64,000 bases of DNA from Oligosphaera ethanolica (GCF_030814695.1 NZ_JAUSVL010000001.1:1834227-1898226), one strand, 5' to 3'; numbered from the stretch's first letter, positions 2,215 through 60,755 are shown. Translations and numbers: made by a program. Notes: a model not told the origin generated them from the sequence alone.

Positions 2215-2603
2215 AATACCCGCACTCCTTTTCTATTGTAGACCGACATATACTGCGATAACCATATCTGCAAAAAACTACGCCCGACAGATTGCCGAAT
2301 AAGCAGCTAACAGCCAAATGTAAGCCCCTGCGCCTGTCTTGCCACCTGAAAACAACTAATCAGATCAGACCGATCAGACCGATCAGACCGATCAGACCGA
2401 CGATCCGTCCGATCAGACCGATCAAATCGACGATCCGTCCGATCCGTCCGATCCGTCCGCGACAAAACTAAGTCGATCAGACCGATCAAATCGACGCTCC
2501 GTCCGCTTGCTTATTCTTCCCCAGCATCGCCTGCGGAACCAGCCCCCCGGCATTATGGTATAGGGCTTACACACTCTTCTTATTGCTTACACGACATATT
2601 CGC
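2215..2603. other. Intergenic region with a GATC repeat array
   Basis: No gene is supported here. It holds the start-proximal sequence of the leftward gene and a 9-bp repeat array at 2363-2506, followed by about 95 bases of unremarkable sequence before the NFACT-R gene. Confidence 0.7.
2363..2506. repeat. GATC-N-GWC-N 9-bp repeat array, copy 1
   Basis: Starts with four GATCAGACC units, then GATCCGTCC units, joined by GATCAAATCGAC-type linkers, and the first block ends GTCCGCGACAAAAC. Every unit carries a GATC site 9 bp from the next. The GAC-core units and the GTC-core units are reverse complements at 7 of 9 positions, so the two arms can pair imperfectly. Six other arrays of this type lie in the window. 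Confidence 0.9.
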
Positions 2604-3020
2604 ATGCGAAAATCATTTACAAATCCCGACGACGGCCCGCCTGAGCCGCGCTGCTGGTCATACGACCTCGCCGACGGCTGGCTGGCCCGCGCCGGTAAAA
2701 CCGACGACGACAACGACCTGCTGTCCCTGCGCTGCGCCCACCCGAACGACTGGTGGTTCCACGTTCACGCCATGCCCGGCAGCCACGTCGTCCTCAGCCA
2801 CGCCGACAAAACCAAGGCGCCCGACGCTGACATTCTTCGCGCGGCCGCCGCCATCGCCGCCTGGCACAGCAAGGCCCGCGACGGCGGCAACTGCCCAGTG
2901 TCCTGCACCCAGGCACGCAATGTCTCAAAGCCCCGTGGCGCCAAACCCGGCACCGTCACCATCAGCAAGGAAAAAATCATCCGGGTCAAACCAGGATTGC
3001 CGCAGGACGGCCCGGCGTAA
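2604..3020 (+). CDS. Stand-alone NFACT-R (DUF814) RNA-binding domain protein
   Basis: A 138-aa protein that is essentially one NFACT-R domain, the RNA-binding module of RqcH/Tae2/FbpA proteins. Family landmarks are DWWFHVHAMPGSHVVL (residues about 45-60), an AAAIAAWHSKAR helix, and C-terminal VSKPRGAKPGTVTISKEK. The coiled coils and NFACT-N domain of full-length RqcH are absent. The ATG at 2604 is chosen; an in-frame TTG at 2583 would add seven residues. The gene stands alone between repeat regions. A role in ribosome-associated quality control or tRNA handling is inferred from the family only. Confidence 0.85.
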   Translation: MRKSFTNPDDGPPEPRCWSYDLADGWLARAGKTDDDNDLLSLRCAHPNDWWFHVHAMPGSHVVLSHADKTKAPDADILRAAAAIAAWHSKARDGGNCPVSCTQARNVSKPRGAKPGTVTISKEKIIRVKPGLPQDGPA

Positions 3021-3058
3021 GGCGGCACCCTGTTACCACGCATCACCGAGCACAATCT

Positions 3059-3768
3059 CGTTATCGGTCAGTAACCACCCCGGTGGGAAAAAACACCGGG
3101 GACAATTTGCAGGAAACCCACGGCCAGTCGCTACCCAGCCATTCGACCTTGATTTCCGCCGACCTTTGCGGCAGCGAGTTTCATAGGAGTGATTGATAAC
3201 CAAAACTGTGGTGCCTCTACGAGGCACTGTCTGTTAGCAGGCTGCGTCCCCAGGCTAAAGCCTGGGGTTAAGCATGGTTAAGCGCCTACGGCGCAAAAAC
3301 ATCGATATTTAATGATGGTGGTTTTCGGCCCGAACCGGACAAAGCAAGTCGTCAGATCGGCCAAGTTCGGCCCAGAGGGCCGGACCATGCATAACCCCTG
3401 GTGAGGCGCCCGGAGGGCGCCGCAACCAGGGGTATGATAGCAAGTTAGAATTGCGCCCGGAGGGCGCCACATTGGCGAGGCACGCCGCGTCCTGCGATAA
3501 AGTGGCATACCTGGCATGCCGCCGCCGTCCCCCTCAGGCAAGCAAGTGAGTTCCATTGCCTCTTTGGCCCCAGTCAGCTTCGCCGACTGAAGCCAAAGAG
3601 GCTGAGGAACACGGACCAATATGGCGCGCTACCCAGGGCGGCGCGCGCCATCGGCGCCGCTTGCCCTGGGCTGTCTTAGGCCGCGCCTTTGGCGCTGAAG
3701 ACAAAATGCTGCAAAAAAAAGCCGGCACTGCGGCGTGAACGACTGGCATCAATGAGCAAGGCATCACC
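3059..3768. mobile_element. MITE-like composite repeat element with 8-bp direct repeats
   Basis: Non-coding 710-bp element filling the gap between the NFACT-R gene and exbB. The octamer CACAATCT stands immediately outside both ends (3051-3058 and 3769-3776), as a target-site duplication would. The left end reads GTTATCGGTCAGT and the right end, reverse-complemented, GTGATGCCTTGCTCATTGAT. Both resemble the ends of the element at 19489-20042. Inside are a 92-bp segment (3098-3190) that recurs inverted at 61118-61209, a 304-bp hairpin-rich unit (3189-3492) that recurs at 60773-61076, and a segment from about 3550 to 3740 shared with the elements at 19489 and 55160. The 8-bp duplication and GTAA-like ends are typical of IS66-family movement; that origin is inference. 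Confidence 0.65.
3189..3492 (+). repeat. 304-bp hairpin-rich repeat, copy A
   Basis: Nearly identical in sequence and equal in length to 60773-61076. It contains stacked palindromes: GTGCCTC/GAGGCAC, CCCCAGGCT/AGCCTGGGG, GCGCCC/GGGCGC, and a 9-bp pair ACCCCTGGT (3394-3402) with ACCAGGGGT (3425-3433). A partial inverted copy of its first ~90 bases is at 36238-36325. No open frame is conserved between copies. Confidence 0.85.
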
Positions 3769-3884
3769 CACAATCTGGTGCCGGAGCCGGCGATCGCAAC
3801 GCATTTTTTGCCACATCGTGCTAGATTACAAGTTTACACTTAAAAAGGCCCCCGGGCCGTTTGTCTTACTCAACGGAGAAGTCC

Positions 3885-4619
3885 ATGTCCTATTTTCAAC
3901 AGCTGCTCAACGACGGCGGACCCATTGTCTATGTGCTTCTGGGCTGCCTGCTTCTGGCGACAATCATCTTCCTCGACCGCTTTTTCTACTGCCATCGCGC
4001 TCGCATCGATACCCGCGAATTTCTCCGCGGGCTGTTCAACATCCTCAAGAACAACAAAGTCGTCGAGGCCATCGCCATCTGCGACAGCACGCCCGGACCG
4101 GTATCTGCCACAGTCCGCGCCGCCATCTGCCACTGCGACCAGGACGAGGGGAAGATCCGCCAGGCAGTGGACGAGGCCGCACTGACCGAGATTCCCCGGC
4201 TTGAACGTAATACCAAGCTGCTGGCCGCCATCGGCCAGATCGCCCCCGTGCTGGGCCTACTGGGCACCCTCATCAGCCTCATGAGCATCTTCAGCAAAAT
4301 GCAGGGCCAGGGCCACTTTGTCGAAACCATCCAGCTCGCCGAACATGTCCGCAGCGCCCTCATCAGCTCCGTCATGGGACTCATTGTCGCCCTCGCAGTA
4401 CAGCTGTTCTACTTCATCCTCGCCGAACAAATCGGCAAGATCGTCCTCGATATGGAAAAGAGCGCCAGCGAAATGATCTACTTCCTCGCAGCGCGCAAAT
4501 TCACGCCCGCCGACCAAGGCGCCGTGTCAGCCTTGACCGCCACGCCCACCGAAGAAAGCGCCATCGACAACGCCACGATCAGCGACGAGATGGACGACGA
4601 CAAGCAGAAAGACCTCTGA
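3885..4619 (+). CDS. exbB: ExbB/TolQ/MotA-family proton channel protein
   Basis: A 244-aa inner-membrane protein of the MotA/TolQ/ExbB family. The first membrane segment is at residues ~15-32 (IVYVLLGCLLLATIIFLDRF), followed by a cytoplasmic region. The conserved core LLAAIGQIAPVLGLLGTLIS covers the second segment and SSVMGLIVALAVQLFYFIL the third. The ATG at 3885 has CGGAGAAG seven bases upstream. exbD follows one base after the stop and a TonB-like gene overlaps that, so the three form one operon. They should use the proton gradient to energise outer-membrane transport. TolQ rather than ExbB is possible, but no TolA/TolB gene is adjacent. Confidence 0.88.
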   Translation: MSYFQQLLNDGGPIVYVLLGCLLLATIIFLDRFFYCHRARIDTREFLRGLFNILKNNKVVEAIAICDSTPGPVSATVRAAICHCDQDEGKIRQAVDEAALTEIPRLERNTKLLAAIGQIAPVLGLLGTLISLMSIFSKMQGQGHFVETIQLAEHVRSALISSVMGLIVALAVQLFYFILAEQIGKIVLDMEKSASEMIYFLAARKFTPADQGAVSALTATPTEESAIDNATISDEMDDDKQKDL

Positions 4620-4620
4620 T

Positions 4621-5148
4621 ATGCCGCGCTGGAAAAGCACTATGGGCGTCACCGCCGGCCAGTACCCGCTGGTCGCCATACTCGACTTGTTTTTCATCCT
4701 GCTGATCTTTTTCCTCATCGGCAACAGCGTGGTCTTTTGGCCTGGCACCCAGGTCGAGACGTCGCTCAGCCTCCCGCGCACCGCGCAGGCCGAGATGCAC
4801 GAAGCCGACAAACTCATCATCACCATCACCCGCTCGGGCCAGATCTTCTTCAACGAAAAAGCCCTCGACTGGCACGGCCTGGAAAAAGAGCTGCGCGAGC
4901 GAGTCCGGGAAAGCAACATCACCAGCGCCCGCCGACGCAATCTCGATCCCGCCACCGCTCCCAAGGCCTCGCGCCCACCAATGGTCGCCCTGCGGGCAGA
5001 CAAAGATCTGCCCTATGAACGTATCAATGCCGTGATGGCTCTGGCGCGCTCCCTCGGCCTCGGGGTCTATCTTGTCGCCGACGTCGAAGCGACGAACGCC
5101 GCGCCACAGCTCAACCTCGCCCCAGCTCGCAGTAGCCAGATGCCATGA
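4621..5148 (+). CDS. exbD: ExbD/TolR-family biopolymer transport protein
   Basis: A 175-aa protein with one N-terminal membrane helix (residues ~17-38, ending FFLIGN) and a periplasmic domain. The helix starts PLVAILDLFFILLIFFL, in which the Asp matches the conserved channel Asp of ExbD/TolR. The C-terminal ALRADKDLPYERINAVMALARSLGLGVYLV matches the family's periplasmic fold. Residues ~105-120 (ARRRNLDPATAPKASRP) look like a small insertion. It begins one base after exbB and overlaps the next gene by 4 bp (ATGA), showing translational coupling. Confidence 0.87.
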   Translation: MPRWKSTMGVTAGQYPLVAILDLFFILLIFFLIGNSVVFWPGTQVETSLSLPRTAQAEMHEADKLIITITRSGQIFFNEKALDWHGLEKELRERVRESNITSARRRNLDPATAPKASRPPMVALRADKDLPYERINAVMALARSLGLGVYLVADVEATNAAPQLNLAPARSSQMP

Positions 5149-5948
5149 AGCGCCGAAACCGCCGCCAAACTTATCGCACGCACGCCCTGTGGCGCCGACT
5201 CTTCGCCTGCGCGACGGCACTGCTCTTGCTGTCGCCAATGCTTTTTCTCGACGTTACCAGCACCAGCGCCGACCCGCAGACCAACAGTGCGAACGACGCC
5301 GAGGTCGTCAGTCTACCGCCCCGCCCTGAGGCGGGGACCGCCCCAGCTCTGGCGACGATATACGACTGGCTGAGTATCAGCGACCCGACCATCTTTATCC
5401 TGCCCAATATCGACATGGGCTTTGCGCGCTTTCGCCCCCTGCCCCAGCATGAATTCCGCGCGGCGCTGCCCGCCAACGTCTGGAATCCGGGTGCTCCGAC
5501 GCCGCCGGTGATTCATGCCATGGCCCTGCCCATTCGCTTGAGCAGCCTGGACTTGCTGCTGACCGAGCAATGGCCGCGGGATACGGCGCTGACCATACCG
5601 CCTCTGCCGCAATGGCAGACACCCAGCGGCATTTTCTGGCGCGATTTGCGTGGTCGTCTGGTCATTGACCCGCCCATCATCCAGCCGGATTTCATCAGCC
5701 AGGCCATCAACGACCACGGCCAGCCCCAGCAGATCACCCTGCTGGAAATCGAGTTGACGCCGTTGCTGCCCATGCCCCGCACGGTCATTCGCCAGAGTTG
5801 CGGCAATGTCAAACTCGATGCACTGCTGCTCAACGCCGTCCGCGATTATTTCCAACGCCAGCCCTTCACGCCGGCGACCGCCGGTCCCCGTCGCGCCCGC
5901 AAGCTCCTGCTGGAAATCGACTGGCGCCTGCCCGCAGCCCGTAGTTAA
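5145..5948 (+). CDS. Probable TonB-like energy-transducing protein
   Basis: A 267-aa protein with a basic N-terminus and one membrane segment (residues ~22-38, CATALLLLSPMLFLDV), then a long proline-rich periplasmic part. The C-terminal region (GRLVIDPPIIQPDFISQAI... and LLLEIDWRLPAA) could form a TonB-like beta domain, but no strong TonB motif is visible and the usual Glu-Pro/Lys-Pro spacer is absent. The assignment rests on topology, proline content and the 4-bp overlap with exbD. If it is TonB, it is highly divergent. No homologue is recognised with certainty. Confidence 0.55.
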   Translation: MKRRNRRQTYRTHALWRRLFACATALLLLSPMLFLDVTSTSADPQTNSANDAEVVSLPPRPEAGTAPALATIYDWLSISDPTIFILPNIDMGFARFRPLPQHEFRAALPANVWNPGAPTPPVIHAMALPIRLSSLDLLLTEQWPRDTALTIPPLPQWQTPSGIFWRDLRGRLVIDPPIIQPDFISQAINDHGQPQQITLLEIELTPLLPMPRTVIRQSCGNVKLDALLLNAVRDYFQRQPFTPATAGPRRARKLLLEIDWRLPAARS

Positions 5949-5961
5949 GGCCAATCTGCCC

Positions 5962-6240
5962 ATGACCATCGCCTTTTTCATGACCATCAGCATCCAGAAC
6001 GCCATGCTCCTGCACGTCCTGGGGCTTTTCGTGCTGGCTTTCGTCGCCTATATCATCACCATTATCCGCGACCAGGCCGTCGCCTGGGACATCTCCAGGC
6101 ACAAGCTAGGCTCCTGCACCAAATGCGGCCTTGTCTTTCTCAGCAAACGCCAGGCCCAAATGCCCGAGTGCCCACGCTGCGCCGGCCGGGCCGAGCCATA
6201 CCTGAACAAAAAAACCCACAGCCCATCCACCACCCAATGA
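5962..6240 (+). CDS. Small membrane protein with a C-terminal zinc ribbon
   Basis: A 92-aa protein. Residues ~12-36 form a membrane helix (AMLLHVLGLFVLAFVAYIITII). The cytoplasmic tail carries two CxxC knuckles, CTKCG and CPRCAG, spaced as in a zinc ribbon. The ATG at 5962 is chosen because earlier in-frame starts lie inside the preceding gene. It sits 13 bases after the TonB-like gene and overlaps rsmD by 4 bp. Function unknown; redox sensing or RNA/protein contact at the membrane are both possible. Confidence 0.75.
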   Translation: MTIAFFMTISIQNAMLLHVLGLFVLAFVAYIITIIRDQAVAWDISRHKLGSCTKCGLVFLSKRQAQMPECPRCAGRAEPYLNKKTHSPSTTQ

Positions 6241-6821
6241 GAATCATCAGCGGCGCAGCCCGGGGTATTCGCCTCACCGCCCCGGCAGGACGTGACGTCC
6301 GACCAACCGAAGACCGTGTCAAGGAAGCGATTTTCGCCACTATCGGCGACCTCGGCGACAGCGTCGTCGTCGATCTCTTCGCCGGCACTGGCGCCCTCGG
6401 GCTGGAGGCGTTCAGCCGCGGCGCCAGAAGCGTCCGTTTCGTCGAGAAGGCCCAGGCGCATTGCATGGTCATCAAGCAGAACCTCCAGGCTGTCCTCAAG
6501 GCCATGGGCAATCCGTCCGCGCCGGATATCGATGTGCTCTGCGGCGACGCCAGCCGCGCGCCGGCGTTGCTGCCGCAGCTGGCCGGCAGCTGCGACGTCA
6601 TTCTCGCCGATCCGCCCTATCACCCCCCGGCGGGTGCCTACGGCGCCCGCGAGCTACTGCTGGATGCCGACTTCGCCGCCTGGGCCGGACCGCAGGCCCT
6701 CCTCGTCCTGGAATTCGGCGCCGACGTAAGTCTGCCATGGTCGCCGGACTCGCCCTGGCGCACTCTTAAGATCAAGACCTTCGGCATCCGCGCAGTGGCC
6801 TTCGCTAAGCTCGTGCAGTGA
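6237..6821 (+). CDS. rsmD: 16S rRNA (guanine966-N2)-methyltransferase RsmD
   Basis: A 194-aa Rossmann-fold methyltransferase. It has the RsmD N-terminus MRIISGAARG, the PTEDRVKEAIFATI segment, motif I DLFAGTGALGLEAFSRGA for S-adenosylmethionine, and the catalytic DPPY motif (ADPPYHPP) typical of N-methyltransferases acting on exocyclic amines. Length is normal for the family. It starts inside an ATGA overlap with the zinc-ribbon gene, so it is probably the last gene of the exbB operon. The product methylates G966 of 16S rRNA during 30S assembly. Confidence 0.93.
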   Translation: MRIISGAARGIRLTAPAGRDVRPTEDRVKEAIFATIGDLGDSVVVDLFAGTGALGLEAFSRGARSVRFVEKAQAHCMVIKQNLQAVLKAMGNPSAPDIDVLCGDASRAPALLPQLAGSCDVILADPPYHPPAGAYGARELLLDADFAAWAGPQALLVLEFGADVSLPWSPDSPWRTLKIKTFGIRAVAFAKLVQ

Positions 6822-6839
6822 GCACGCCGGCAGCACCAG

Positions 6840-6906
6840 CCGACCCGTCAGTCGGATTTTCTTCGTCCAGCCGTGCTTTTTCCCCGAAAAAGCATTTCGT
6901 GGCTGG
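6840..6906 (+). terminator. Tandem hairpins after rsmD, possible terminator
   Basis: Two inverted repeats lie in the 176-bp gap before the ABC genes. CCGAC/GTCGG (6840-6855) is followed by ATTTTCTT. CCAGCC/GGCTGG (6867-6906) contains an inner GCTTTTT/AAAAAGC pair. The first stem is short, so termination is uncertain. Confidence 0.45.
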
Positions 6907-6997
6907 GAACTCGCGTTTTATCACTGGGTCAAAAGGGCTTTGTTCCCTCTGGCACCCCTGTTGTCGGCAACCTGAAAATCAGGAGGAAATGTTAGGC

Positions 6998-8688: not shown

Positions 8689-8704
8689 ACCAACCGGCAT
8701 GTCA

Positions 8705-8724
8705 GGCCGCCGCGACCGGCGGCC
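8705..8724 (+). other. Intra-operon hairpin
   Basis: An inverted repeat GGCCGCCG/CGGCGGCC with a four-base loop lies in the 60-bp gap between the permease and the GldG-like gene. It has no T-tract, so it is more likely an mRNA-stabilising structure than a terminator. Confidence 0.4.
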
Positions 8725-8748
8725 AAGGACCAAGGAGCAACGTTAACT

Positions 8749-20072: not shown

Positions 20073-20091
20073 GATCAGACCGATCAGACCG
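20073..20091. repeat. GATC-N-GWC-N repeat, short copy 2
   Basis: Two GATCAGACC units, 23 bases beyond the MITE-like element's target duplication. This is the shortest member of the 9-bp repeat family. Confidence 0.7.
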
Positions 20092-24567: not shown

Positions 24568-25167
24568 GGGTGTTGCCTCCGCAACAAAGAGCCGCCGGGA
24601 CGGCGGCGCTCCCAGGTTCGATGCCGCCGGGACGGCGGCGCTCCCAGGTTCGATGCCGCCGGGACGGCGGCGCTCCCAGGAGTCCAACCGGTCCCCAATC
24701 AGTCCCCAGCGTCCAAAGCGTCAATCCCCACGGTCCAACTCGTCCCCACGGTCCAATCCATGAGATCATGCCTCATGAGTCAGTGAGTCCTCGCCCCAGC
24801 GCGCAGCCGCCGCCAAGAGCCGCCGGGACGGCGGCGCTCCCAGGAGTCCAACCGGTCCCCAATCAGTCCAATGCGTCCAAAGCGTCAATCCCCACGGTCC
24901 AACTCGTCCCCACGGTCCAATCCATGGGATCATGCCTCATGAGTCAGTGAGTCCTCGCCCCAGCGCGCAGCCGCCGCCAAGTGCCGCCGGGACGGCGGCG
25001 CTCCCAGGTTCAATGCCGCCGGGACGGCGGCGCTCCCAGGAGTCCAAAAAGTCCCCAATCAGTATCACGCCGTGGTTTGTTTCGCGCTATGCGTAGACTA
25101 CAGTGAAAGTCATGTTTCACGGGCGTATTTATACACGTTCCATGCTTCAAAAATGGAGGACTTAGTG
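24568..25167. repeat. Tandem repeat region: 32-bp and 164-bp periods
   Basis: The 26-bp hairpin block beginning GCCGCCGGGACGGCGGCGCT starts at 24591, 24623, 24655, 24819, 24983 and 25015. The spacing is 32 bp three times and exactly 164 bp twice, so 24655-24818 and 24819-24982 are tandem 164-bp units. Each 164-bp unit also contains GTCCAA/GTCCCC-rich sequence and the palindrome-like ATGCCTCATGAGTCAGTGAG. Inverted relatives are at 19549-19687 and 58034-58066. No gene is supported; the last ~100 bases should hold the promoter of the following hydrolase. Confidence 0.85.
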
Positions 25168-28100: not shown

Positions 28101-29352
28101 CGACCGGCACTACTACGGCACGCCTGCGGCCTTCGCCGGCCATGTCAAAGACGTCGATTTGCGGGTGCTGGGCAAGCCCCTCATCGTCGGCGAATGCGGC
28201 GCCAAGAACCACCCGACCTTCAAGGAGCAGGACCCCTGGCGCAACGGCGATGACGACGAGAGCTACAGCCGGCGTTTCCTCTACCTGGTCCACCACGCTT
28301 TCGGTTTCGGCGCCACGGCGCTGCTGTCCTGGCATTGGCGCGATCCCATGGAAGGCATCTTCCCCTGCGGGCTCATCCATCAGACCGGCACGCCGCGACC
28401 AACCGCCGCTCTCTACAGCGACATGGCCCGCGTCTTCGGCTTGCTCGAACTGGTCGACAACCCGCCCGACGTCGTGCTGCTACTGCCGGACTACCTCCGC
28501 CACACGCCCAAACGCGGTACCCTCACTGAGGCCGCGCATAATGTCACCGACGCCCTTCTCTGGCACGGCGCCAATCTGTCGCTTCTCCCCGATTCGCTGG
28601 CAAGCGAGCTGCCCGCCAGCGTGAAGCTGGTGATCTATCCCCTGCCCTACGTGGTCAGCGACGATACGCTGCAGGCCCTCACGGCATTCGTCCAGCGTGG
28701 CGGCGTGCTCTGGCTCTCCGGCGACATGTCGCGCGACAGCGCTAATCCCGGTGGCGACCCCATCCCCGCGCGCCTGGAGGCGCTCTGCGGCGTGCGCCCC
28801 ACCGCGCTGCTGGCAGCCGAACCCATGGTCGCCGGCCCCGACACGCTGCCGCCGGTCGCCGCCGGCCCCCTCGCCGGCCAGCAGTTCCGGCCTGCCATGG
28901 CCCTGGAGCTAACCACGGCGCTGCCCTGGTTCAGCGCCGGCGACACGCCAGTGGTCGTGCAGAATCGCCTAGGCGCCGGGACGGTCGCCTTCACCGCCGA
29001 TCCGCTGGAAATCAGCAGCCTCAATCGCCACGCCATGCGCGTCATCTACGGCAAACTGCTCAAACAGGCCGGCGCCCAGACGACCCGCCACGCCGATACG
29101 CCCGACGACCTCACCACCTTCCGCGTCCCCGGCCGCAATGGCACCGCTTGGGTCTTCTGGAACAACGGCCTGGACAGCATCAACGCCGTCCACAACGACA
29201 TCACCCTCCCCGTCGCCGCCGGCTACGGCGCCTGCCTCATCATCGGTCACGACGACCGCATCATCGCCCTCGAAGCACATGGCGATGTCCGCCGCGGCAA
29301 CAAGGTCGTCGCCAAACTCAATGGCCACGGCTTCGTCGTCATCGAGAAATGA
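25168..29352 (+). CDS. Large secreted multi-domain glycoside hydrolase (clan GH-A-like)
   Basis: A 1394-aa protein with a signal peptide (residues 1-20). It begins with a carbohydrate-binding jelly roll (NLVPNGDFSLRP...WEP to ~residue 190). A GATase-like beta-galactosidase segment (LLVVPSGDVFP) and a second jelly roll (~residues 350-500) follow, then a TIM barrel from ~residue 770 (MLSIDGQARFTMGCQNYWG). The probable acid/base is Glu891 in DICNEPS and the nucleophile Glu1009 in IVGECGAK. A GH42-trimerisation-like domain and a beta-sandwich end the protein. GGAGG eight bases before the ATG at 25168 fixes the start. It is divergent from the regulator operon, with an IS now in between. Exact GH family not recognised. 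Confidence 0.8.
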   Translation: MTCRVFLGLLALTAAYAWSQSPNLVPNGDFSLRPRDPRTAVGWEPQAAAGTVVIEVDRDIDFRGSPALRIRSGADGEKKWHWSSRTVPGLRAGTPYTLSAYVRTEGLGDGSMAYISLNCYRGAGASNRLQTNDSPTKLSGTTDWTRIVMTIPELAKGSSEVRVHLCLYGTGTAWFTQVQVEEGRDATPFQPADADRRDGHQSDAQQALAREWLAALPASAQRIAVLDLGPLDHLGPGRAPAAVPTLTKALAASGYQAVAILAAQLINDHYFNSDNFELLVVPSGDVFPANAHTALTQFLQDGGLLLTMGGYACDRPVNQDRDGRWRDQRDIPRDGLRPDQPVAIGDAGRWRPSTNRKDRPTLINAIAGPDGSDGIEIATPELSGWDTGLFRFADELPAAWSVLSFWVKGGPETSRAWFELTEEDGSRWHYAVELTPEWREVVITMEQLTYWHDNPSIGRGGDGDFINPRAVQQLSFGVALDIVKTGMAHQAAIAGLKAGVDPRWQERLAVWPQINTRRARIRDAMWPKATQIGAFDPSFPLRDVARTASAPEAAGIFPQLTLPGAVGGWSAVAMLGLNGHGFGPNHARWLPLLECYDGAGSSRGHAAAVIRHFGGVFSGSSWAIFGVNDRDLFSADSPVLNTLLPPLLAQLLRRYFLHDTTTGYACYRHGETAEFKTTLSNYGDKDISTVVRFTLKDEASAVLATWDQPTTVGPMASQTLTQAWPVPADAPDYIDFSAELWEDGRCLDREEGAVVIWTPAVIACGPKLAKDGLMLSIDGQARFTMGCQNYWGQHNSVTARSPRAFNRDFKQMREHHLRWSRCFLPIKNESDARVSDAIVQLAQKHGIVLYHTPNLSNTLEEWSLAQQRQSASDIGRRYRDVPGLALDICNEPSMKFAAPGFEQALGHAPKPDGHWADPQVHNTWRLVSDAQRRWAQNSRDAIRAEKPALPVSIGWSQGWSGGVAAKDPLLASLDLDFTDRHYYGTPAAFAGHVKDVDLRVLGKPLIVGECGAKNHPTFKEQDPWRNGDDDESYSRRFLYLVHHAFGFGATALLSWHWRDPMEGIFPCGLIHQTGTPRPTAALYSDMARVFGLLELVDNPPDVVLLLPDYLRHTPKRGTLTEAAHNVTDALLWHGANLSLLPDSLASELPASVKLVIYPLPYVVSDDTLQALTAFVQRGGVLWLSGDMSRDSANPGGDPIPARLEALCGVRPTALLAAEPMVAGPDTLPPVAAGPLAGQQFRPAMALELTTALPWFSAGDTPVVVQNRLGAGTVAFTADPLEISSLNRHAMRVIYGKLLKQAGAQTTRHADTPDDLTTFRVPGRNGTAWVFWNNGLDSINAVHNDITLPVAAGYGACLIIGHDDRIIALEAHGDVRRGNKVVAKLNGHGFVVIEK

Positions 29353-29473
29353 TCCGACGGATCTTCTGTCTATTATCGCGGACGGATCGGACGGATCGGA
29401 CGGATCGGACGGATCAGACGGATCGTTGACTTGATCGGTCCGATCGGTCCGATCGGTCTGATCGGTCTGATCA
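29351..29473. repeat. GATC-N-GWC-N repeat array, copy 3 (inverted, truncated by IS copy 2)
   Basis: Read on the minus strand it matches the other arrays. The end motif GTCCGCGATAATAGAC is at 29366-29381 (plus strand GTCTATTATCGCGGAC), next to GATCGGACG units, then a TTGACTT linker and GATCGGTCC/GATCGGTCT units. The IS at 29474 inserted into the last unit. It begins at the hydrolase stop codon. Confidence 0.88.
29465..29473. repeat. Target-site duplication of IS copy 2, left
   Basis: GTCTGATCA, part of the GATC repeat array; identical copy at 31674-31682. Confidence 0.92.
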
Positions 29474-34707: not shown

Positions 34708-34940
34708 GTCTTTTATCGCGGACGAATCGGACGGATCCGACTGATCCGACTGATCCAATCGACGATCGGTCCGATCAGTCCGATCAGTCCGATCAGTCCG
34801 CGATATCAAAAAAGAAGATCTGTCCGATCAGTCCGCGATAAAAGACCGTTGCTCCGACTGATCCGACTGATCAAATCGACGATCGGTCCGATCCGTCCGA
34901 TCAGTCCGATTCGTCCGCGATAGAAGACCGTTGATCCGAC
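34708..34940. repeat. GATC-N-GWC-N repeat array, copy 4 (two units)
   Basis: Two complete two-arm units in tandem. GATCCGACT units, the linker GATC(C/A)AATCGAC, GATCGGTCC/GATCAGTCC units and the end motif GTCCGCGATAAAAGAC or a close variant occur twice. An inverted end motif GTCTTTTATCGCGGAC is at 34708. This copy best shows the higher-order unit of the family. Confidence 0.9.
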
Positions 34941-42419: not shown

Positions 42420-42763
42420 GGTGGCGTGGTCCTCTTTTGGGGTTGTCAGCCGCGTCGGGGCGGACCAATGTGTCCACCCCAGCCCGATCCGACTGATCTA
42501 GTCGACGATCCGACTGATCCGACTGATCCGACTGATCAAGTCGACGATCCGTCCGATCCGTCCGATCCGTCCGATCCGTTCGCGATAAAAGACAGTAGAT
42601 CCGACAGATCCGACTGATCCGACTGATCACATCGACGATCCGTCCGATCCGTCCGATCCGTCCGATCCGTCCGCGATACAAGACAGTAGATCCGACTGAT
42701 CGGTCCGCGAAAAACCGCGTCGGGGCGGACCGATGTGTCCGCCCCAGTCCGATCCGATCTGCG
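42420..42763. other. Intergenic region: hairpin, GATC array, hairpin
   Basis: No gene is supported. A GATC array (42486-42710) stands between two copies of the hairpin GGGGCGGAC-N6-GTCC(G/A)CCCC, at 42457-42480 and 42722-42745, each preceded by CGCGTC. Confidence 0.8.
42486..42710. repeat. GATC-N-GWC-N repeat array, copy 5 (two units)
   Basis: GATCCGACT units, the linker GATCAAGTCGAC or GATCACATCGAC, GATCCGTCC units (four in each block), and the end motifs GTTCGCGATAAAAGAC and GTCCGCGATACAAGAC. The two-arm pattern is the same as at 34708-34940. Confidence 0.9.
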
Positions 42764-46756: not shown

Positions 46757-47232
46757 ATAATCGGTCAGTCACTGATAACAGCCGTGCCACCGCAAAGAGG
46801 TGTTTTTGTCTCACGCGAAGCCGCGAAGCCGCGATGAAGACAAAGGCAAAGAAGATGGCGGCATGTCTTGCCGCTTTGCGGCAATCCACGCCGCCGCTTC
46901 AAGCCGCAACGGACACAAGGGCGCCATCCTCACCGTGCCTATTGCCGTCGATTGCCGTCGATTGCCGTCGATTGCCGTCGATTGCCGTCGATTGCCGTCG
47001 ATTGCCGTCGATTGCCGTCGATTGCCGTCGATTGCCGTCGATTGCCGTCGATTGCCGTCGATTGCCGTCGATTGCCGTCGATTGCCTGTCGATTGCCGTC
47101 GATTGCCTGTCGATTGCCGTCGATTGCCGTCGATTGCCTGTCGATTGCCGTCGATTGCCATCGATTGCCAAGAAGCCCCACCGGTTCCAGGCGTGCCCTC
47201 GAACTGGCTGTTATCAATGGGTGACCGGTTAC
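46757..47232. mobile_element. MITE-like element carrying the decamer array
   Basis: The left end reads ATAATCGGTCAGTCACTGAT followed by AACAGCC. The right end, on the opposite strand, reads GTAACCGGTCACCCATTGAT followed by AACAGCC. The two ends match at 22 of 27 positions and resemble the ends of the elements at 19489 and 60762. The decamer array 46941-47170 lies inside. No exact target duplication is visible, so the insertion is older or the ends are off by a few bases. Confidence 0.6.
46941..47170. repeat. ATTGCCGTCG decamer tandem array (about 22 units)
   Basis: Fourteen perfect head-to-tail copies (46941-47080), then a mix of ATTGCCGTCG and the 11-bp variant ATTGCCTGTCG, ending ATTGCCATCG ATTGCCA. 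There are no spacers, so this is not a CRISPR array. The absence of stops makes several frames open through it. Confidence 0.95.
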
Positions 47233-52090: not shown

Positions 52091-52091
52091 C

Positions 52092-52137
52092 TGATCCGTC
52101 CGCGAAAAGACAGTCGATCCGCCCGATCCGTCCGCGC
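52092..52137. repeat. GATC-N-GWC-N repeat array, short copy 6
   Basis: GATCCGTCC followed by the end motif GCGAAAAGAC, then another GATCCGTCC GCG block. Only the GTC arm is present. Confidence 0.7.
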
Positions 52138-52144
52138 AAACGCA

Positions 52145-52178: not shown

Positions 52179-52207
52179 GTTCATGCGTCTAATTAAACAG
52201 CAACCGA

Positions 52208-52897: not shown

Positions 52898-52958
52898 ACT
52901 TTCTGTCCTTTCAAACATGGAATTACAGAGGAAAAACACCAAACCAGACGATAGCCGC

Positions 52959-52987
52959 ATTTTACACAATTCTTGCAGCAATAGCAA
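52959..52987 (-). promoter_or_regulatory. Sigma-70-like promoter of the pseudopilin gene
   Basis: On the minus strand TTGCTA (52982-52987) and TAAAAT (52959-52964) are 17 bases apart. The predicted start lies about 55 bases before the ATG. Confidence 0.55.
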
Positions 52988-53100
52988 GAGCGGCCCCCAA
53001 AAATCAGCGGGAGGAACTAAATAAAGCAGGTAAAAAAGACTACTCGTGGCTTGGCCCACAGGCCGCTCAGCCCGCTCCACAAGCCGTCGCGCGCATCTTC

Positions 53101-53538: not shown

Positions 53539-53559
53539 GGGCAGTCCGGCGGCGCTGCC

Positions 53560-54996: not shown

Positions 54997-55552
54997 CGTC
55001 AGTCCATTCCATGCTTGAGATAGATAAGTCGTAGTGTCTTGCGCAAGAGTATTTTGCGACAAATTGCGCGGAGCTCGCCACACTCAGAAATACACGCCCT
55101 TTAGTTTACCACCGCTAACGCCTTTCTCCAGCGACCACGCAGGGAAAGGCCTTTACTAGGTAATGCCTTACTCACTGATTCTCGTTGTCTCTGTGGCCTT
55201 ATTGACCGCCCTGCCACAAACCGTCATCCCGTTGGTATTTGAGCGCTGAAAGCGCGATCTATGATAGCCCAGGGCAAGCGACGCCGAAGGCGAAGCGACG
55301 CCCTGGGTAAAGCGCCATTTATGCTCGTGTTCCTCGTCTTGTTCTTTGCGCATTCAGCGCTGTTATTTAGGTCGCCCCTTCAGGGCTCATTTCTGGTCGG
55401 GCCCTTACCCAGGGCGGCGCGCCCTGCGGGCGCTTGCCCTGGGCTATCTTAGGCCGCGCCGTTGGCGCTGAAAACAAAAGGCCGCAGGAATGGCTGGTAG
55501 TGATGACAAAGACATTACTGTCCACCGGGTCCACTCTGTCCACCGGGTCCAC
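54997..55552. other. Intergenic region with a MITE-like element
   Basis: No gene is supported. The element at 55160-55518 covers most of it. A GTCCACCGGGTCCAC duplication lies at 55519-55555. Confidence 0.65.
55160..55518. mobile_element. MITE-like element related to 19489-20042
   Basis: The left end is GTAATGCCTTACTCACTGAT; the right end, on the opposite strand, is GTAATGTCTTTGTCATCACT. The interior shares AGCGCTGAAAGCGCG, CCCAGGGCAAGCGACGCCGA and the GCCCTGGGCTATCTTAGGCC segment with the 19489 element. It is shorter (359 bp) and lacks the middle hairpin. No target duplication is seen. Confidence 0.6.
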
Positions 55553-57256
55553 TTAGTCCAGCCTGCGAATAGCCTCCCGCCGGCTGTCGGCCAGCAGCGC
55601 GTCGACCTGCAGCATTTGGCTGCTCTGTAGCAGCATAAAGCCGGACAGGTACGCGTAGCCGGGCGTATCGTCAACGTTCAGCGCGACAGGCTCGTCACTG
55701 CCCTTGGCCAGGGCGCTCAGCAGCTCGTGCTGCTTGGCGAAGTACCACGCGAGATCGCGCTGCATGGCCCAGTGGATGGGATTGCAGAGCACGCCGCCCA
55801 GGGCCTGAAAGCCCGGCAGATAACGCCCGAAGCGCGTTAAGCCGCCAACGACGCCCGTGGTGTTTGTCGCCTGCCGTCGCGCCAGCGGCGAAAAGCTCAG
55901 GTAGTCGATGGCGGCCAGCATGTCCAAGGCATCGCGGAACAGCGCGTTTTTCTGCTGCGCCGCATGGCGGCCCACCGCTGTCACGAGATCGGCTTTGAGC
56001 GCGACCCGGGCATCGGCGGCGAGGAGCTTGCGGTCAAGCGCCGCCGCGACGACGACGAGACGCTGGCGTTCGATGGTCACTGCTAAATGATGGAAGACCA
56101 TGCTCGGAACGGCCCCAGCGCTGTCCCGCAGCCATGCCTGACGACGCAGCGTCTGCGCCAGCAGTGCGCCATCACCTTCTTCCAGGGCCTGCAAGGCCTG
56201 CAGGCGATATATCCGCGCTGCCGTCCACAGCTGCATCCAGGCGCCAGACTCGCACGTGTAGATGTCCGCCAAGCTCGATTCGCCGTAGTCCAGGCCCAGC
56301 GATAAAGTCGGCCCGTCGCTGAGCGCGTTGAGCTGCGCGACGACCGAGCGATTTTCCTCCAGCCACTGACCAATGCGCGCCGGCTCACCCGCACTTAGCG
56401 CCGGGGACGCGGCGCCGGCGGCGTCAGCATTGGCCACGGGCTGCGCGGCGTCCAGCTCGGCGGCGCTGACGCCGGCCAGGATTTCCCCGAGGGCGCCAAC
56501 GGGCGCGGCGTTGTCGCCATTCGCACCAAAGCCGCTGCGCACATTGAGAGCACTTCTCACCAAGTCGTTACCGTGGGCCGACGCCAGCTGCAGCTGTTCG
56601 ACGGCATTGCGCTGCTCGGCGTCGAGGGTGAGAATGCAATGCCACGCCTGCAGGGCGAACCAGGTCAGGGTCAGCGCCCAGGCGGCAGCTATCGTCCGCC
56701 GGCTGAAGCCATCGCTGCCAACGAGCTGGGTCAGCGCCTGGGTGGCAGCGAGGTACGCGGCAATGCCGCAGAGACTGAACCAGAATCCGATCTGAAAATT
56801 GATACCGAAGGCGCCACTGAGGCCCCAGATGATTGCCAGCCACTGACCACAACCGCCAATCACGCCCAGAAAACTCCAGTAGGCGGCGCGGCGTTGCCGC
56901 TGTTTAAAGGCGACCAGGAGGACGGCTAGGTGGTAATAGAGCGGCCCGAGGACCACGATGGGCAGCAGCCACAGCGTCGCCCACAACTGGCTGCGTTGGT
57001 AGGTCCTAGCCAGGACGTCCGTCCAGTACTGATAAATCATGCTGAGGCCGATGATAAAACCGATGAGGATGGCCATCAGCCCCATTTCATATACCGCCGC
57101 GTACGGCGCCCTGCTGGCCCCTTGTATTTGTGGCAGATACAGGTAAAACAACAGGGAAATTAGTACGCTCGGCAGGCAGAAGACCATGCCTATGCCCACC
57201 AAGGCCTTGGCTGCCGATGGGCCGGCCTGGGGACGCTCAAACCACGCGTTGCTCAT
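55553..57256 (-). CDS. Polytopic membrane protein of unknown function
   Basis: A 567-aa protein I do not recognise. Membrane helices lie at residues ~18-42, 55-77, 90-115, 125-150, 155-175 and 190-210. A large soluble C-terminal region (~220-567), Ala/Leu-rich and probably all-helical, follows. The soluble part contains a low-complexity Ala stretch (residues ~268-290). It starts 30 bp after nqrD ends on the same strand and is probably co-transcribed with it. No enzyme motif is visible. Confidence 0.7.
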   Translation of the reverse strand: MSNAWFERPQAGPSAAKALVGIGMVFCLPSVLISLLFYLYLPQIQGASRAPYAAVYEMGLMAILIGFIIGLSMIYQYWTDVLARTYQRSQLWATLWLLPIVVLGPLYYHLAVLLVAFKQRQRRAAYWSFLGVIGGCGQWLAIIWGLSGAFGINFQIGFWFSLCGIAAYLAATQALTQLVGSDGFSRRTIAAAWALTLTWFALQAWHCILTLDAEQRNAVEQLQLASAHGNDLVRSALNVRSGFGANGDNAAPVGALGEILAGVSAAELDAAQPVANADAAGAASPALSAGEPARIGQWLEENRSVVAQLNALSDGPTLSLGLDYGESSLADIYTCESGAWMQLWTAARIYRLQALQALEEGDGALLAQTLRRQAWLRDSAGAVPSMVFHHLAVTIERQRLVVVAAALDRKLLAADARVALKADLVTAVGRHAAQQKNALFRDALDMLAAIDYLSFSPLARRQATNTTGVVGGLTRFGRYLPGFQALGGVLCNPIHWAMQRDLAWYFAKQHELLSALAKGSDEPVALNVDDTPGYAYLSGFMLLQSSQMLQVDALLADSRREAIRRLD

Positions 57257-57286
57257 GTCGGTCTTTCTCGCGATGTCATGCGTAAA

Positions 57287-57925
57287 TCAGCCTTCGTGGT
57301 TGGGCGCGGCGCCGGTCTGCGGCCAGATGCTTTTGACGACCCACACCACGACGCCGAGGGTCAGGAAGGCGCCGGGCGCGGTCTTGAGGAACATCGCCGG
57401 CTGGAAGCTGGCCGGGAAGACACTGTGGCCCAACAGGGTGCCACCACCAAGAAGCTCGCGGATAACGGCGATGAACAGCAGCACCAGCGCATAGCCGGCG
57501 CCATTGGCCAGGCCATCTAAAAAGGCCGGCAGGGGCTTGCTGCGAATGGCAAAGGCCTCGCAACGGCCAAGCACGATGCAGTTGGTGATGATCAGACCCA
57601 CGTATGGTCCCAGCGCTTTGCTCATCTCCAGATGGTACGCGCGCAAATAGAGGTGAACCAGGATGACAAACACGGAGATGACCATCATCTGCACCATCAA
57701 GCGCACGCGATAGGGGATGGTGCTGCGCAACACCGACACCATTAGGCAACTCAGCGACGTCACGATCATCAACGCCAAGCCCATCACCAGCGTGGTGCTG
57801 ACCAGGCCAGTTATCGCCAACGCCGAACAAATCCCCAAAACCTGCACTAAGACTGGATTGTCCTTCCCCAGCGCGTCGCGGATGATGCCCATGGGGCCGG
57901 GCTTGCTGTTCTGAAGTGCTGCCAT
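57287..57925 (-). CDS. nqrD: Na+-translocating NADH:quinone reductase subunit D (NqrD), orphan
   Basis: A 212-aa six-helix membrane protein. The NqrD signatures LGICSALAITG (Cys33) and GLIITNCIVLGRCEAFA (Cys116) carry the two Cys that, with those of NqrE, hold the buried iron-sulfur centre. The CSALA form argues for NqrD over RnfE (CPLLA). The ATG at 57925 is chosen (AGGA ~10 bases upstream); an ATG at 57952 is possible. No other nqr gene is adjacent: upstream is intergenic DNA and metY, downstream an unknown membrane protein. The remaining subunits must lie elsewhere, or this copy is specialised. Confidence 0.88.
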   Translation of the reverse strand: MAALQNSKPGPMGIIRDALGKDNPVLVQVLGICSALAITGLVSTTLVMGLALMIVTSLSCLMVSVLRSTIPYRVRLMVQMMVISVFVILVHLYLRAYHLEMSKALGPYVGLIITNCIVLGRCEAFAIRSKPLPAFLDGLANGAGYALVLLFIAVIRELLGGGTLLGHSVFPASFQPAMFLKTAPGAFLTLGVVVWVVKSIWPQTGAAPNHEG

Positions 57926-58033
57926 CGTTGCGGTGTCCTGCGTAAAAATCATGTGGGGCTGCGCCAATGCGGCAAAGCCCTAAATATCACCCGGAAAGAC
58001 CAATATGCCAGTAAGACCAGCGGGTTTTAGGGT

Positions 58034-58066
58034 CTCCTGGGAGCGCCGCCGTCCCGGCGGCACAGG
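58034..58066. repeat. Single copy of the GC hairpin repeat
   Basis: CCTGGGAGCGCCGCCGTCCC followed by GGCGGCA is the reverse complement of the block repeated at 24591-25040. Confidence 0.8.
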
Positions 58067-58117
58067 CAGCCGGCTATTCGCAATCGTTGACCGGTGGCTC
58101 CGGTGGACCCGGTCTCC

Positions 58118-59398
58118 TCAGGCCTTCCCGGCCTTGTCCAGCGCCTGATCGAAGTCCGCGCAGAGATCGTCGATATGTTCCAGGCCGACAGACACCCTGA
58201 TAAGATCTGACGAAACGCCGGCGGCGGCGAGTTCCTGCTCGTTAAGCTGCCGATGGGTCATGCTGGCCGGATGGAGCACGCAGGTCCGTAGATCGGCGAC
58301 ATGCACGGCGATCGCCGCTACCTTGAGGCTGTTCATGACGATTTCGCCGGCCTTCGCACCGCCTTTGACGCCGAAACAAAGGACGCCGCTCGCGCCGCGC
58401 AGGTATTTCTGCGCCATGGCGTGCTGCGGGCTTGCAGGCAGCCCCGGGTAATTCACCCAGCTGACCATCGGGTGCTGCTCCAGATGCTCCGCCAATTTCT
58501 GGGCGTTGAAACAATGCCGTTCCATGCGCACGTGGAGCGTCTCGCAGCCCACCATCGACATGAAGGCATTGAAAGGCATCATCGGCGAGCCCAGATCGCG
58601 GATCCACTGCGCGCGCAGTTTCACCGAGTAGGGACAGGCCTTGAAATCGCGAGTGTAAATCAGCCCGTGATAGCTCGCGTCGGGCTCGACAAAATCGGGG
58701 AAGCGGCCGTTGCTCCAGTCGAAACCGCCCTTTTCGACCACCATGCCGCCAATACTGGTAGCGTGGCCCTCAATGTATTTCGAGGTCGAATGGGTGACGA
58801 TGTCCGCACCGTACTGGAAGGGCTGACAGAGGAAAGGCGTCGGAAAGGTGTTGTCCACTATCAGCGGCAGGCCGTGCTTGTGAGCGGCGGCGGCCATCTT
58901 CTCGATGTCGAGGACAATCAGCGCGGGATTGGCCAGCATCTCGGCAAAAATAGCCCGGGTGTTGGGGCGCACCAACGCGTCAATCTCCGCCAGGGTAACT
59001 TCCGGCGGCACGAAGGAGAATTCCAGACCGGCCTTCTTGAGGGTGTTGGCAAAGAGCGTCACCGTCCCGCCGTAGAGGCTCGACACCGCGATGATGTGGT
59101 CGCCACTGCGGGCGATATTGAGCAAGGCCAGCGCGTTGGCGTTTTGCCCCGAACTTGTCGCCACCGCGGCCACCCCACCCTCCATCGCTGCGATCTTCTT
59201 CTCAAAACAGTCCACCGTGGGATTGGCTAGACGCGTGTAGAAAAAGCCCTCGCGCTTCAAATCAAAAAGATCGGCCACGCTTTGCGCGTCGTCATACTTG
59301 TACGTCGTACTTTGGGTGATGGGCACTACCCGCGGTGCGCCATTTTCGGGTGTGTAGCCGGCCTGAACCGCCAGGGTCTCGAGTTTCCAATTAGCCAT
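58118..59398 (-). CDS. metY: O-acetylhomoserine sulfhydrylase (aminocarboxypropyltransferase)
   Basis: A 426-aa PLP enzyme of the Cys/Met metabolism family. It has LAVQAGYTPENGAPRVVPIT at the N-terminus, YTRLANPTVDCFE, ATSSGQNANALALLNIA, and the PLP-Lys segment THSTSKYIEGHATSIGG. The C-terminal TCVLHPASMTHRQLNEQE is typical of MetY. It makes homocysteine from O-acetylhomoserine and sulfide in the cytoplasm. AAGGA precedes the ATG by ~9 bases. It is divergent from the serine hydrolase gene. Confidence 0.93.
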   Translation of the reverse strand: MANWKLETLAVQAGYTPENGAPRVVPITQSTTYKYDDAQSVADLFDLKREGFFYTRLANPTVDCFEKKIAAMEGGVAAVATSSGQNANALALLNIARSGDHIIAVSSLYGGTVTLFANTLKKAGLEFSFVPPEVTLAEIDALVRPNTRAIFAEMLANPALIVLDIEKMAAAAHKHGLPLIVDNTFPTPFLCQPFQYGADIVTHSTSKYIEGHATSIGGMVVEKGGFDWSNGRFPDFVEPDASYHGLIYTRDFKACPYSVKLRAQWIRDLGSPMMPFNAFMSMVGCETLHVRMERHCFNAQKLAEHLEQHPMVSWVNYPGLPASPQHAMAQKYLRGASGVLCFGVKGGAKAGEIVMNSLKVAAIAVHVADLRTCVLHPASMTHRQLNEQELAAAGVSSDLIRVSVGLEHIDDLCADFDQALDKAGKA

Positions 59399-59523
59399 TG
59401 TCGTTTCCTTCTCCTGTATTACTTTGTGGGTTTTCGCGTATTGACGGGCTTAATCTAGTCCGCCAGGCCCGGGCTGACGAACCGCCCGCAGCCGAATTTT
59501 CCAGCAGCAGGGAGCTTGAGACC

Positions 59524-60567
59524 ATGGCGACCACGATCGAAAACATCATCGGCAATGCCATCAGCGACGGCGTCATCCACGGCGCGGCTATCGTTGGCGG
59601 CGACAACGCGCGGGTCATCTTCCGGCACAGCCAGGGGCTGGCCGTAGGCGGCACGGACATCGCCATGACCACGCGCACAATCATCGACATCGCCAGCGTC
59701 AGCAAAGCTGTCGCCACCGCCACGGCGCTGGCCATCTGCCACGACCGCGGCCTGATCGACTTCGACGCGCCCTTTACCGAGTATCTGCCGGAATTCCGCG
59801 CCGAACTGCCCGCGCCAATCCGCGTCCGCGACCTGGCCATGCATATCTCCGGCTTCGGCCACCGCGCCGGCGAACGCCGGCAATACGACGCGCCCACCGG
59901 CCCGGAAATCATGAACAACATCCTCGCCTTCCCACCACTCTACCCGCCTGGCACGCACTTCGAATACGCCTGCTGGAATTTCCTCCTCCTCGGACGCATT
60001 GTCGAACGACTCAGCGGACGATCACTGGTGGCATTCTGCCAAGACGAAATCTTCGCGCCCCTCGCCATGCACGACAGCAGCATGGGCCAACCTGTCAGTG
60101 ACGACCCACAACGACTCGCCCAGACCGAAGGCTGCAGCGCGCCGGGACAAATCTCCGACTTCATCGCCAGAAGAGTCTTCCGCGATGGCGGCTGCGCCGG
60201 CAACGCGGGCGTCTTCAGCAGCGCCGACGACCTGGCCATCTTCTGCCAATGCCTGCTCAACCACGGCTGCTACGGCAAAGAAAACAAGGCGCTCTTCTCC
60301 ACCGCGACCTTCGCCGAACTCACTACCAACCGCATGCCCGACGGCATGCCCAAACGCAGCTTCGGCTGGGTCATGGCCGACCAATACAAACCGCAGAACA
60401 GCTCCGCGAAAATTATCTACCACTCCGGCTGGAGCGGCCAGTCCATCTTCGCCGATATCGCCAAAAAACGCTTCGTCGTCGTCCTCACCACCCGCTGCGG
60501 TGACTACGATCGCGCCAAACAAGAACGCACAGACATCGCCGACGAGGTCTTCGCGCTCATGCGCTGA
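59524..60567 (+). CDS. Serine hydrolase, beta-lactamase/PBP4-like family
   Basis: A 347-aa protein with the class C beta-lactamase-like fold. SxxK is in IASVSKAVATATAL (the nucleophile Ser and Lys). The second motif is Tyr-Ala-Cys (FEYACWNFLLLG) where YxN is usual. The third is HSGWSGQS, in place of KTG. There is no signal peptide, so it is probably cytoplasmic. Such proteins are mostly esterases or peptidases rather than antibiotic-resistance enzymes. The ATG at 59524 has GGGAG ~11 bases upstream. Confidence 0.83.
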   Translation: MATTIENIIGNAISDGVIHGAAIVGGDNARVIFRHSQGLAVGGTDIAMTTRTIIDIASVSKAVATATALAICHDRGLIDFDAPFTEYLPEFRAELPAPIRVRDLAMHISGFGHRAGERRQYDAPTGPEIMNNILAFPPLYPPGTHFEYACWNFLLLGRIVERLSGRSLVAFCQDEIFAPLAMHDSSMGQPVSDDPQRLAQTEGCSAPGQISDFIARRVFRDGGCAGNAGVFSSADDLAIFCQCLLNHGCYGKENKALFSTATFAELTTNRMPDGMPKRSFGWVMADQYKPQNSSAKIIYHSGWSGQSIFADIAKKRFVVVLTTRCGDYDRAKQERTDIADEVFALMR

Positions 60568-60613
60568 ACAACACGCGACGCACATGCGCGCTACCCGGCA
60601 CGATCATCAAACC

Positions 60614-60755
60614 GATCAGACCGATCAGACCGATCAGACCGATCAGACCGATCAGACCGATCAGACCGATCAGACCGATCAGACCGATCAGTTATCCGAT
60701 CCGTCCGATCCGTCCGATCCGTCCGATCCGTCCGATCCGTCCGATCCGTCCGCGA
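60614..60755. repeat. GATC-N-GWC-N repeat array, copy 7 (most regular)
   Basis: Eight perfect GATCAGACC units, one GATCAGTTA, then six perfect GATCCGTCC units and the end motif GCGAAAA. The two arms differ at two positions per unit from being reverse complements. Confidence 0.93.

What the first reader, a model, noticed from the sequence alone, without database searches (positions are those of the whole stretch)
2363..60755. Dispersed two-arm arrays of 9-bp repeats, each unit carrying GATC
Seven intergenic arrays (2363-2506, 20073-20091, 29351-29473, 34708-34940, 42486-42710, 52092-52137, 60614-60755) are built from units GATC-N-G(A/T)C-N. Complete arrays have a GAC arm, a GATCAAATCGAC-type linker, a GTC arm and then an end motif close to GTCCGCGATAAAAGAC. 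The arms are reverse complementary at 7 of 9 bases per unit, and every unit keeps GATC. Arrays vary in unit base (A, C or G at position 5) but are homogeneous within an arm, as if spread by slippage and then kept symmetric. Phased GATC sites could serve Dam-type methylation, SeqA/MutH-like binding or replication/segregation control. They could also be a slipped DNA element without function. I know of no described family of this form.
Basis: partly seen in the sequence, partly recalled or inferred. Interest (0 to 1): 0.7.

Follow-up and report, generated by a model that had tools for sequence, protein, structure and literature searches.

The report
Gene-linked short repeats scattered through bacteria
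The GATC-rich 9-bp arrays are real and belong to a family of short tandem repeats that, in many bacterial phyla, sit in and around the genes of one uncharacterised protein family (TIGR04258), each branch of which has its own repeat sequence, which looks like a previously undescribed partnership between a protein and a spreading DNA repeat.

Summary
The arrays are real: about 1,150 two-unit matches in this 5.73-Mb Lentisphaeria-like chromosome, none in the reversed-pattern control. The unit is GATC-N-GNC-N. Six positions are almost fixed and the others vary freely. Complete copies are oriented elements: GAC arm, linker, GTC arm, GCGAtAAAAGAC tail. Sampled copies lie between genes. Their orientation follows the replication fork (56/67 loci, Fisher p=1.6e-8), not neighbouring genes. 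The same unit occurs in many phyla and is far commoner than control patterns. The Dam/SeqA/MutH idea is not supported. The partner appears to be the four-helix-bundle-suffix protein family TIGR04258. Its genes are flanked and interrupted by short tandem arrays: 18 period-9 runs and no other period 5-15 in 30 loci not chosen for repeats. Repeat type follows the protein tree. GATC-type proteins form one clade (support 100/99); other clades have other 9-bp units, and a deep clade has 7-, 8- and 10-bp units. It works like REP elements with RAYT transposases but uses a different protein and a tandem-array repeat. Weak point: this genome and a sister with about 900 matches each lack a GATC-type gene, so their arrays are orphaned or moved in trans. 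The protein link is well supported; replication-coupled spread is inferred.

The parts
2363..2506 (+). two-arm GATC array (GAC arm, linker GATCAAATCGAC, GTC arm, tail GCGACAAAACTAAGTC) plus a second degenerate copy
20073..20091 (+). two-unit remnant GATCAGACC x2
29351..29473 (-). two-arm array in minus orientation; a syntenic array of the same orientation but different units lies at the same place in congener G002
34708..34940 (+). compound two-arm array with an inverted tail motif at its left end; no array at the same place in congeners G001 and G002
42486..42710 (+). tandem of two complete 91-bp elements plus a partial one; syntenic array of the same orientation in G002
52092..52137 (+). short remnant: two tail motifs with one or two GTC-arm units
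60614..60755 (+). two-arm array, 8 GAC units and 6 GTC units, tail GCGAAAAAAGG
46941..47169 (.). 10-bp array (ATTGCCGTCG, i.e. CGATTGCCGT): dispersed copy of the 10-bp unit that forms a ~410-bp array just upstream of this genome's own TIGR04258 gene at chromosome 3272111-3272827
55518..55560 (.). 9-bp array GTCCACCGG/GTCCACTCA, matching the GTCCACNNN unit beside this genome's TIGR04258 gene at chromosome 5293616

Best explanation
The arrays are dispersed copies of a short tandem repeat whose partner is the TIGR04258 (four-helix-bundle-suffix) protein family. SHOWN: TIGR04258 genes carry period-9 arrays (7, 8 or 10 bp in a deep clade) on their flanks and, in the GATC clade, inside their own linkers. 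The repeat sequence follows the protein clade, and the GATC-N-GNC-N unit belongs to a single clade. In this genus the repeat became an oriented two-arm element with its own tail, placed between genes, gained or lost between congeners, and oriented with the replication fork. INFERRED: the protein (four-helix bundle related to 23S rRNA intervening-sequence proteins, often with a topoisomerase-type zinc ribbon) recognises its repeat, probably as a single-stranded hairpin, and its action spreads or expands the repeat. Spread uses DNA exposed at the fork, which fixes orientation: the strand that folds best is the lagging-strand template. The fixed bases are those needed for any two units to pair (GATC with GATC, G-N-C with G-N-C) or for recognition; the free bases face each other as tolerated mismatches. 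In this genome the GATC elements now act in trans or are orphaned.
For: 30 TIGR04258 loci from 30 genomes, taken by domain score only: 18 period-9 runs, none of any other period 5-15, in 15/30 loci (19/30 with a looser threshold); Y1 transposase loci 0/12; 2 runs in 277 kb of masked background. Two further loci found by protein search also have period-9 repeats beside the gene: a viral-collection contig and Prevotella nigrescens. GATC-type proteins form one clade, 100/99 support, 0/500 shuffles; of members not chosen for arrays 4/4 have GATC arrays against 0/37 outside. Arrays lie inside or directly beside TIGR04258 genes in at least 9 of the cross-phylum loci. Unit length changes with clade. 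Co-occurrence: 20/21 genomes with 3 or more array matches have the family, against 75/128 others, p=5e-4. Orientation follows replichore, 56/67, p=1.6e-8; flanking gene strand has no effect (p 0.91, 0.63); origin side set by GC skew and three 16S genes. Hairpin more stable on the leading-sense strand in 38/46 elements. Site 34708 lacks an array in both congeners. An array codes a loop inside a nonribosomal peptide synthetase.
Against: This genome and G002 (909 and 965 array matches) have three TIGR04258 genes each, none GATC-type; G039 (167 matches) likewise shows only non-GATC genes. So high copy number does not need the gene, which fits loss after spread, action in trans, or a protein that limits rather than spreads the repeat. 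No insertion event or target duplication was seen at base level. Many GATC-clade loci were found because they carry arrays, so clade purity rests on few unselected members. Orientation was measured in one genome. The protein model has no confident structural match that shows an activity.
Confidence: 0.55

Rival explanations
1. The arrays are fixed binding sites: TIGR04258 proteins are DNA- or RNA-binding regulators or chromosome organisers, the arrays beside the gene are for self-control, and dispersed arrays are polar sites used during replication or segregation. They spread by ordinary duplication.
For: Zinc ribbon of topoisomerase type in the GATC clade; polar orientation with the fork; six fixed positions; arrays avoid promoter regions and start codons.
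Against: Array-rich genomes lack the GATC-type gene; copies differ between congeners at the same site; arrays also code linkers inside proteins, odd for a regulatory site; sampled arrays show no bias of gene context beyond intergenic space.
Confidence: 0.2
2. Self-complementary repeats that expand by replication slippage and fold-back, with no protein partner; fixed positions are simply those that keep units able to pair.
For: Units pair with one another at exactly the fixed positions; hairpin differs between strands; tandem higher-order copies.
Against: Heterogeneous arrays in other phyla keep GATC and GNC. Other palindromic tetramers in the same frame are rare: 3/149 genomes against 31/149, and 5 and 6 against 46 stretches in IMG/VR. 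Link to TIGR04258 genes and clade-specific units.
Confidence: 0.1
3. REP-like elements moved by RAYT / Y1 tyrosine transposases on single-stranded DNA.
For: Orientation with the fork; one Y1 gene in this genome has 9-bp arrays on both sides; a REP-like GGCCC hairpin lies at the edge of 17/72 arrays; Y1 genes near arrays in G029 and G048.
Against: No Y1 match in 111 cross-phylum array loci or 46 viral-collection loci; G002 has 965 array matches and no Y1 gene, G058 has 28 Y1 genes and one array match; no GTAG/GTGG foot; tandem array instead of a single hairpin.
Confidence: 0.08
4. GATC sites for Dam methylation, SeqA or MutH control of replication or segregation.
For: Every unit has GATC; orientation follows replication.
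Against: Best D12 methylase match in this genome is weak and of a kind shared with array-free relatives; strong Dam-type matches are in genomes with 0-1 array matches. The related repeats of the other clades lack GATC.
Confidence: 0.03

Closest known systems
REP/REPIN elements with RAYT (TnpA-REP) transposases, 'REPtrons' (PMC3116915, PMC6006769, PMC3733652)
   Same: Dispersed, mostly intergenic, hairpin-forming repeats; each protein type has its own repeat; repeats flank, and in one RAYT subclass lie inside, the protein gene; link to single-stranded DNA at the lagging strand.
   Different: Partner is a four-helix-bundle protein, not a Y1 HUH transposase; repeat is a tandem array of 7-10 bp units with fixed and free positions, not a 20-40 bp palindrome with GTAG or CGTC foot.
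IS200/IS605 elements IS608 and ISDra2 (PMC6006769)
   Same: Insertion at single-stranded lagging-strand template would give orientation with the fork.
   Different: No transposase in the element, no known target tetranucleotide found.
HIP1 of cyanobacteria (PMC4390886)
   Same: Very frequent repeat with GATC at its core.
   Different: HIP1 is a single 8-bp palindrome GCGATCGC tied to orphan methylases; here arrays with a 9-bp period and no methylase link.
23S rRNA intervening-sequence protein / TIGR02436 four-helix bundle; Avd of diversity-generating retroelements (relation to Avd from own knowledge)
   Same: N-terminal half of TIGR04258 proteins matches this family weakly.
   Different: TIGR04258 adds a suffix domain and often a zinc ribbon, and is linked to short tandem repeats; no reverse transcriptase link was tested.

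Membership tests
REP/RAYT (REPtron) | Y1 tyrosine transposase gene linked to the repeat | tested here: not met
   0 Y1 matches in 111 + 46 array loci; G002 none; one linked Y1 gene in this genome
REP/RAYT (REPtron) | single 20-40 bp palindrome with GTAG/GTGG or CGTC foot | tested here: not met
   tandem 9-bp units, two arms, variable arm length
REP/RAYT (REPtron) | protein-specific repeat flanking its gene and dispersed in the genome (works-like feature) | tested here: met
   met with TIGR04258 in place of RAYT
Dam/SeqA/MutH-controlled GATC sites | Dam-type methylase present where arrays are present | tested here: not met
Dam/SeqA/MutH-controlled GATC sites | SeqA or MutH homologue present | not tested
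Dam/SeqA/MutH-controlled GATC sites | GATC methylated in the arrays | not testable with these tools
   needs long-read signal
Cognate repeats of TIGR04258 proteins (proposed here) | tandem repeats beside or inside TIGR04258 genes more than beside other genes | tested here: met
   18 period-9 runs and no other period in 30 unselected loci; 0/12 Y1 loci
Cognate repeats of TIGR04258 proteins (proposed here) | GATC unit tied to one protein clade | tested here: met
   clade support 100/99; unselected members 4/4 against 0/37
Cognate repeats of TIGR04258 proteins (proposed here) | GATC-type gene present in this genome | tested here: not met
   three TIGR04258 genes, all of other types
Cognate repeats of TIGR04258 proteins (proposed here) | protein binds or moves the repeat | not testable with these tools
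   needs biochemistry

The most novel reading that the evidence does not exclude
A new class of protein-repeat system: TIGR04258 proteins recognise and spread their own short tandem repeats (7-10 bp units with fixed and free positions) through bacterial chromosomes of many phyla, coupled to the replication fork and without any known transposase.
Probability: 0.45. Interest if true: 0.9.

Novelty: categorically new. Interest (0 to 1): 0.82.

Why it matters
It would give a function and a DNA partner to a widespread protein family of unknown role, explain the 9-bp arrays scattered through many uncultured bacteria, and show a way of spreading DNA repeats that uses neither a known transposase nor plain slippage. 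The clade-to-repeat match makes it directly testable: each protein predicts its own binding sequence.

Tried and rejected
Rfam scan of the window: no match. RAYT as general partner: rejected. Dam: rejected. Terminators: rejected, since arrays sit between divergent genes (22) more often than convergent ones (13). Symmetric arms kept by pairing: rejected, since free positions avoid pairing. Chance or composition: rejected (controls). Whole-array palindromy of short arrays in other phyla: no excess of complementary W; N pairs slightly above within-array shuffles (P=0.014), while complementary N across GATC and across GWC is depleted. Structure search: only a weak S23/IVP-family match, 2rld. Literature: no paper with the repeat letters or with TIGR04258 in the open library.

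Full report
1. Observation. The arrays exist as described. The window lies at 1834227-1898226 of a single 5,729,305-bp contig. The two-unit pattern GATCNGWCNGATCNGWC has 1152 forward matches there and none when read backwards. The organism is close to Lentisphaeria: named Lentisphaeria metagenome contigs (isolate STF2_230) hold the same kind of element with the same tail.

2. Anatomy. From 60 stretches plus the window (757,803 bases, about 13% of the chromosome) the element reads: (GATC-N-GAC-N)n, a linker of 11-13 bases such as GATCAAGTCGAC, (GATC-N-GTC-C)m, then GCGATAAAAGAC or a variant. Elements repeat in tandem. Arm lengths do not correlate. Between neighbouring units, positions 1-4, 6 and 8 differ in at most 0.9% of pairs, positions 5 and 9 in 22% and 20%, and position 7 in 3%. 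A congener has arrays with C or G at position 7, so the unit is GATC-N-GNC-N. These fixed bases are exactly those that let any two units pair with each other in antiparallel (inference from the sequence). Pairing at the remaining positions is rarer than expected.

3. Position and orientation. None of 72 merged arrays overlapped a predicted gene by more than half; this used a simple hexamer gene finder written for the purpose. Arrays often begin 5-40 bp after a stop codon; 5' ends of neighbouring genes are usually more than 100 bp away. GC skew changes sign near 2.3-2.4 and 5.1 Mb, and the three 16S genes all lie on the plus strand of the G-rich half, so the origin is probably near 2.35 Mb. Using only tail and linker, 56 of 67 loci have the same orientation relative to the fork (Fisher p=1.6e-8), with no effect of flanking gene strand. 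The strand carried by the lagging-strand template folds better in 38 of 46 elements (which tested both strands of each element; single example; most of these elements have the majority orientation).

4. Spread. 31 of 149 related genomes hold three-GATC matches, against 3 of 149 for the same pattern with TCGA. In IMG/VR contigs the pattern gives 46 stretches against 5, 1, 6 and 2 for control patterns and 9 for the C/G version. Some cross-phylum hits are coding.

5. Between congeners. In G002 (about 87-92% identical in flanks) two of three compared sites hold an array of the same orientation with different units; the third (34708) does not. G001 has no array there either. So arrays are gained or lost, or rebuilt, on this time scale. 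No exact insertion junction was obtained.

6. Looking for a partner. RAYT genes do not track the arrays. Dam-type methylases do not. Comparing all proteins around the cross-phylum arrays showed one family recurring with the array in or directly beside the gene. It is TIGR04258, four helix bundle suffix domain, with a weak 23S rRNA intervening-sequence match and, in this clade, a topoisomerase-type zinc ribbon. The family is in 95 of 149 relatives.

7. The link is general and specific. In 30 loci picked by domain score only, there are 18 period-9 runs and none of any other period from 5 to 15; Y1 loci have none. A looser threshold gives 37 period-9 runs in 19 loci. Units differ between clades: GAC-N-GATC-N, GAC-NN-GTC-N, GAC-NNN-GTG, GAC-N-YATRR and others. 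A deep clade has 10-bp (L381, L392, L393), 8-bp (L385) and 7-bp (L389) units. The GATC type is one clade with support 100/99. Most of its 15 rows were found through their arrays or by adjacency, so the fair test uses the four members not chosen that way: 4/4 against 0/37. Two later loci found by protein search, in a viral-collection contig and Prevotella nigrescens, also have 9-bp repeats beside the gene.

8. This genome. Its three TIGR04258 genes (4481489, 5293616, 3272111) have GGACGTANN, GTGGACCCA/GTCCACACT and 10-bp CGATNGCNGT repeats beside them, and dispersed copies of these units occur elsewhere in the sampled chromosome, two of them in this window (46941-47169 and 55518-55560). None is GATC-type. 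The same holds for G002. This is the main difficulty for a simple model in which the GATC-type protein spreads the GATC arrays now.

9. Mechanism. I favour a REPtron-like system in the sense of how it works: a protein that acts on its own repeat, spread coupled to single-stranded DNA at the fork. Shown: linkage, clade specificity, orientation, intergenic placement, site polymorphism. Inferred: recognition, mobility, strand. The AlphaFold model is confident (mean pLDDT 88.8; helices plus a C-terminal zinc-ribbon-like segment) but has no significant match in the PDB; the most plausible of the weak ones is an S23/IVP protein (2rld, E=0.52).

10. Novelty. No paper in the open-access library contains the repeat letters or TIGR04258; subscription papers and the NCBI family notes could not be read. 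It is not a REP/RAYT member because the defining transposase and palindrome are absent, though it works in a similar way.

Noticed in passing
chromosome 2709699-2711700 (locus L061 about 4200-6300): A Y1 (RAYT-like) transposase gene has an 865-bp array of GAGC-N-G(A/T)C 9-bp units upstream and, downstream, copies of a composite repeat (about 184-bp spacing) with GGCGCCC and GGCCC hairpins that contain a short GATC array.
   Followed up: partly
window 24591-25008: Tandem 32-bp and 164-bp repeats of GCCGCCGGGACGGCGGCGCTCCCAGG with GTCCAA-type 9-bp units.
   Followed up: no
17 of 72 sampled arrays, e.g. L045, L062, L076: A REP-like hairpin (TTCGGCCCGGAGGGCCG..ACCATG) abuts the array, mostly at the right end in the same orientation.
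   Followed up: partly
L096 97-132 and 6639-6674: Acidobacterial array in an open frame that reads as a loop of a nonribosomal peptide synthetase (RSDRSDGSDRSVG) at 97-132; a second array in open frame at 6639.
   Followed up: partly
L389 and L385: TIGR04258 genes with 7-bp and 8-bp repeats beside them, suggesting that unit length changes with protein clade.
   Followed up: partly
G000, G002, G039, G013: The genomes richest in GATC arrays lack a GATC-type TIGR04258 gene (or any, G013), while genomes shown to have one hold fewer arrays; this could mean that the protein limits array number.
   Followed up: no
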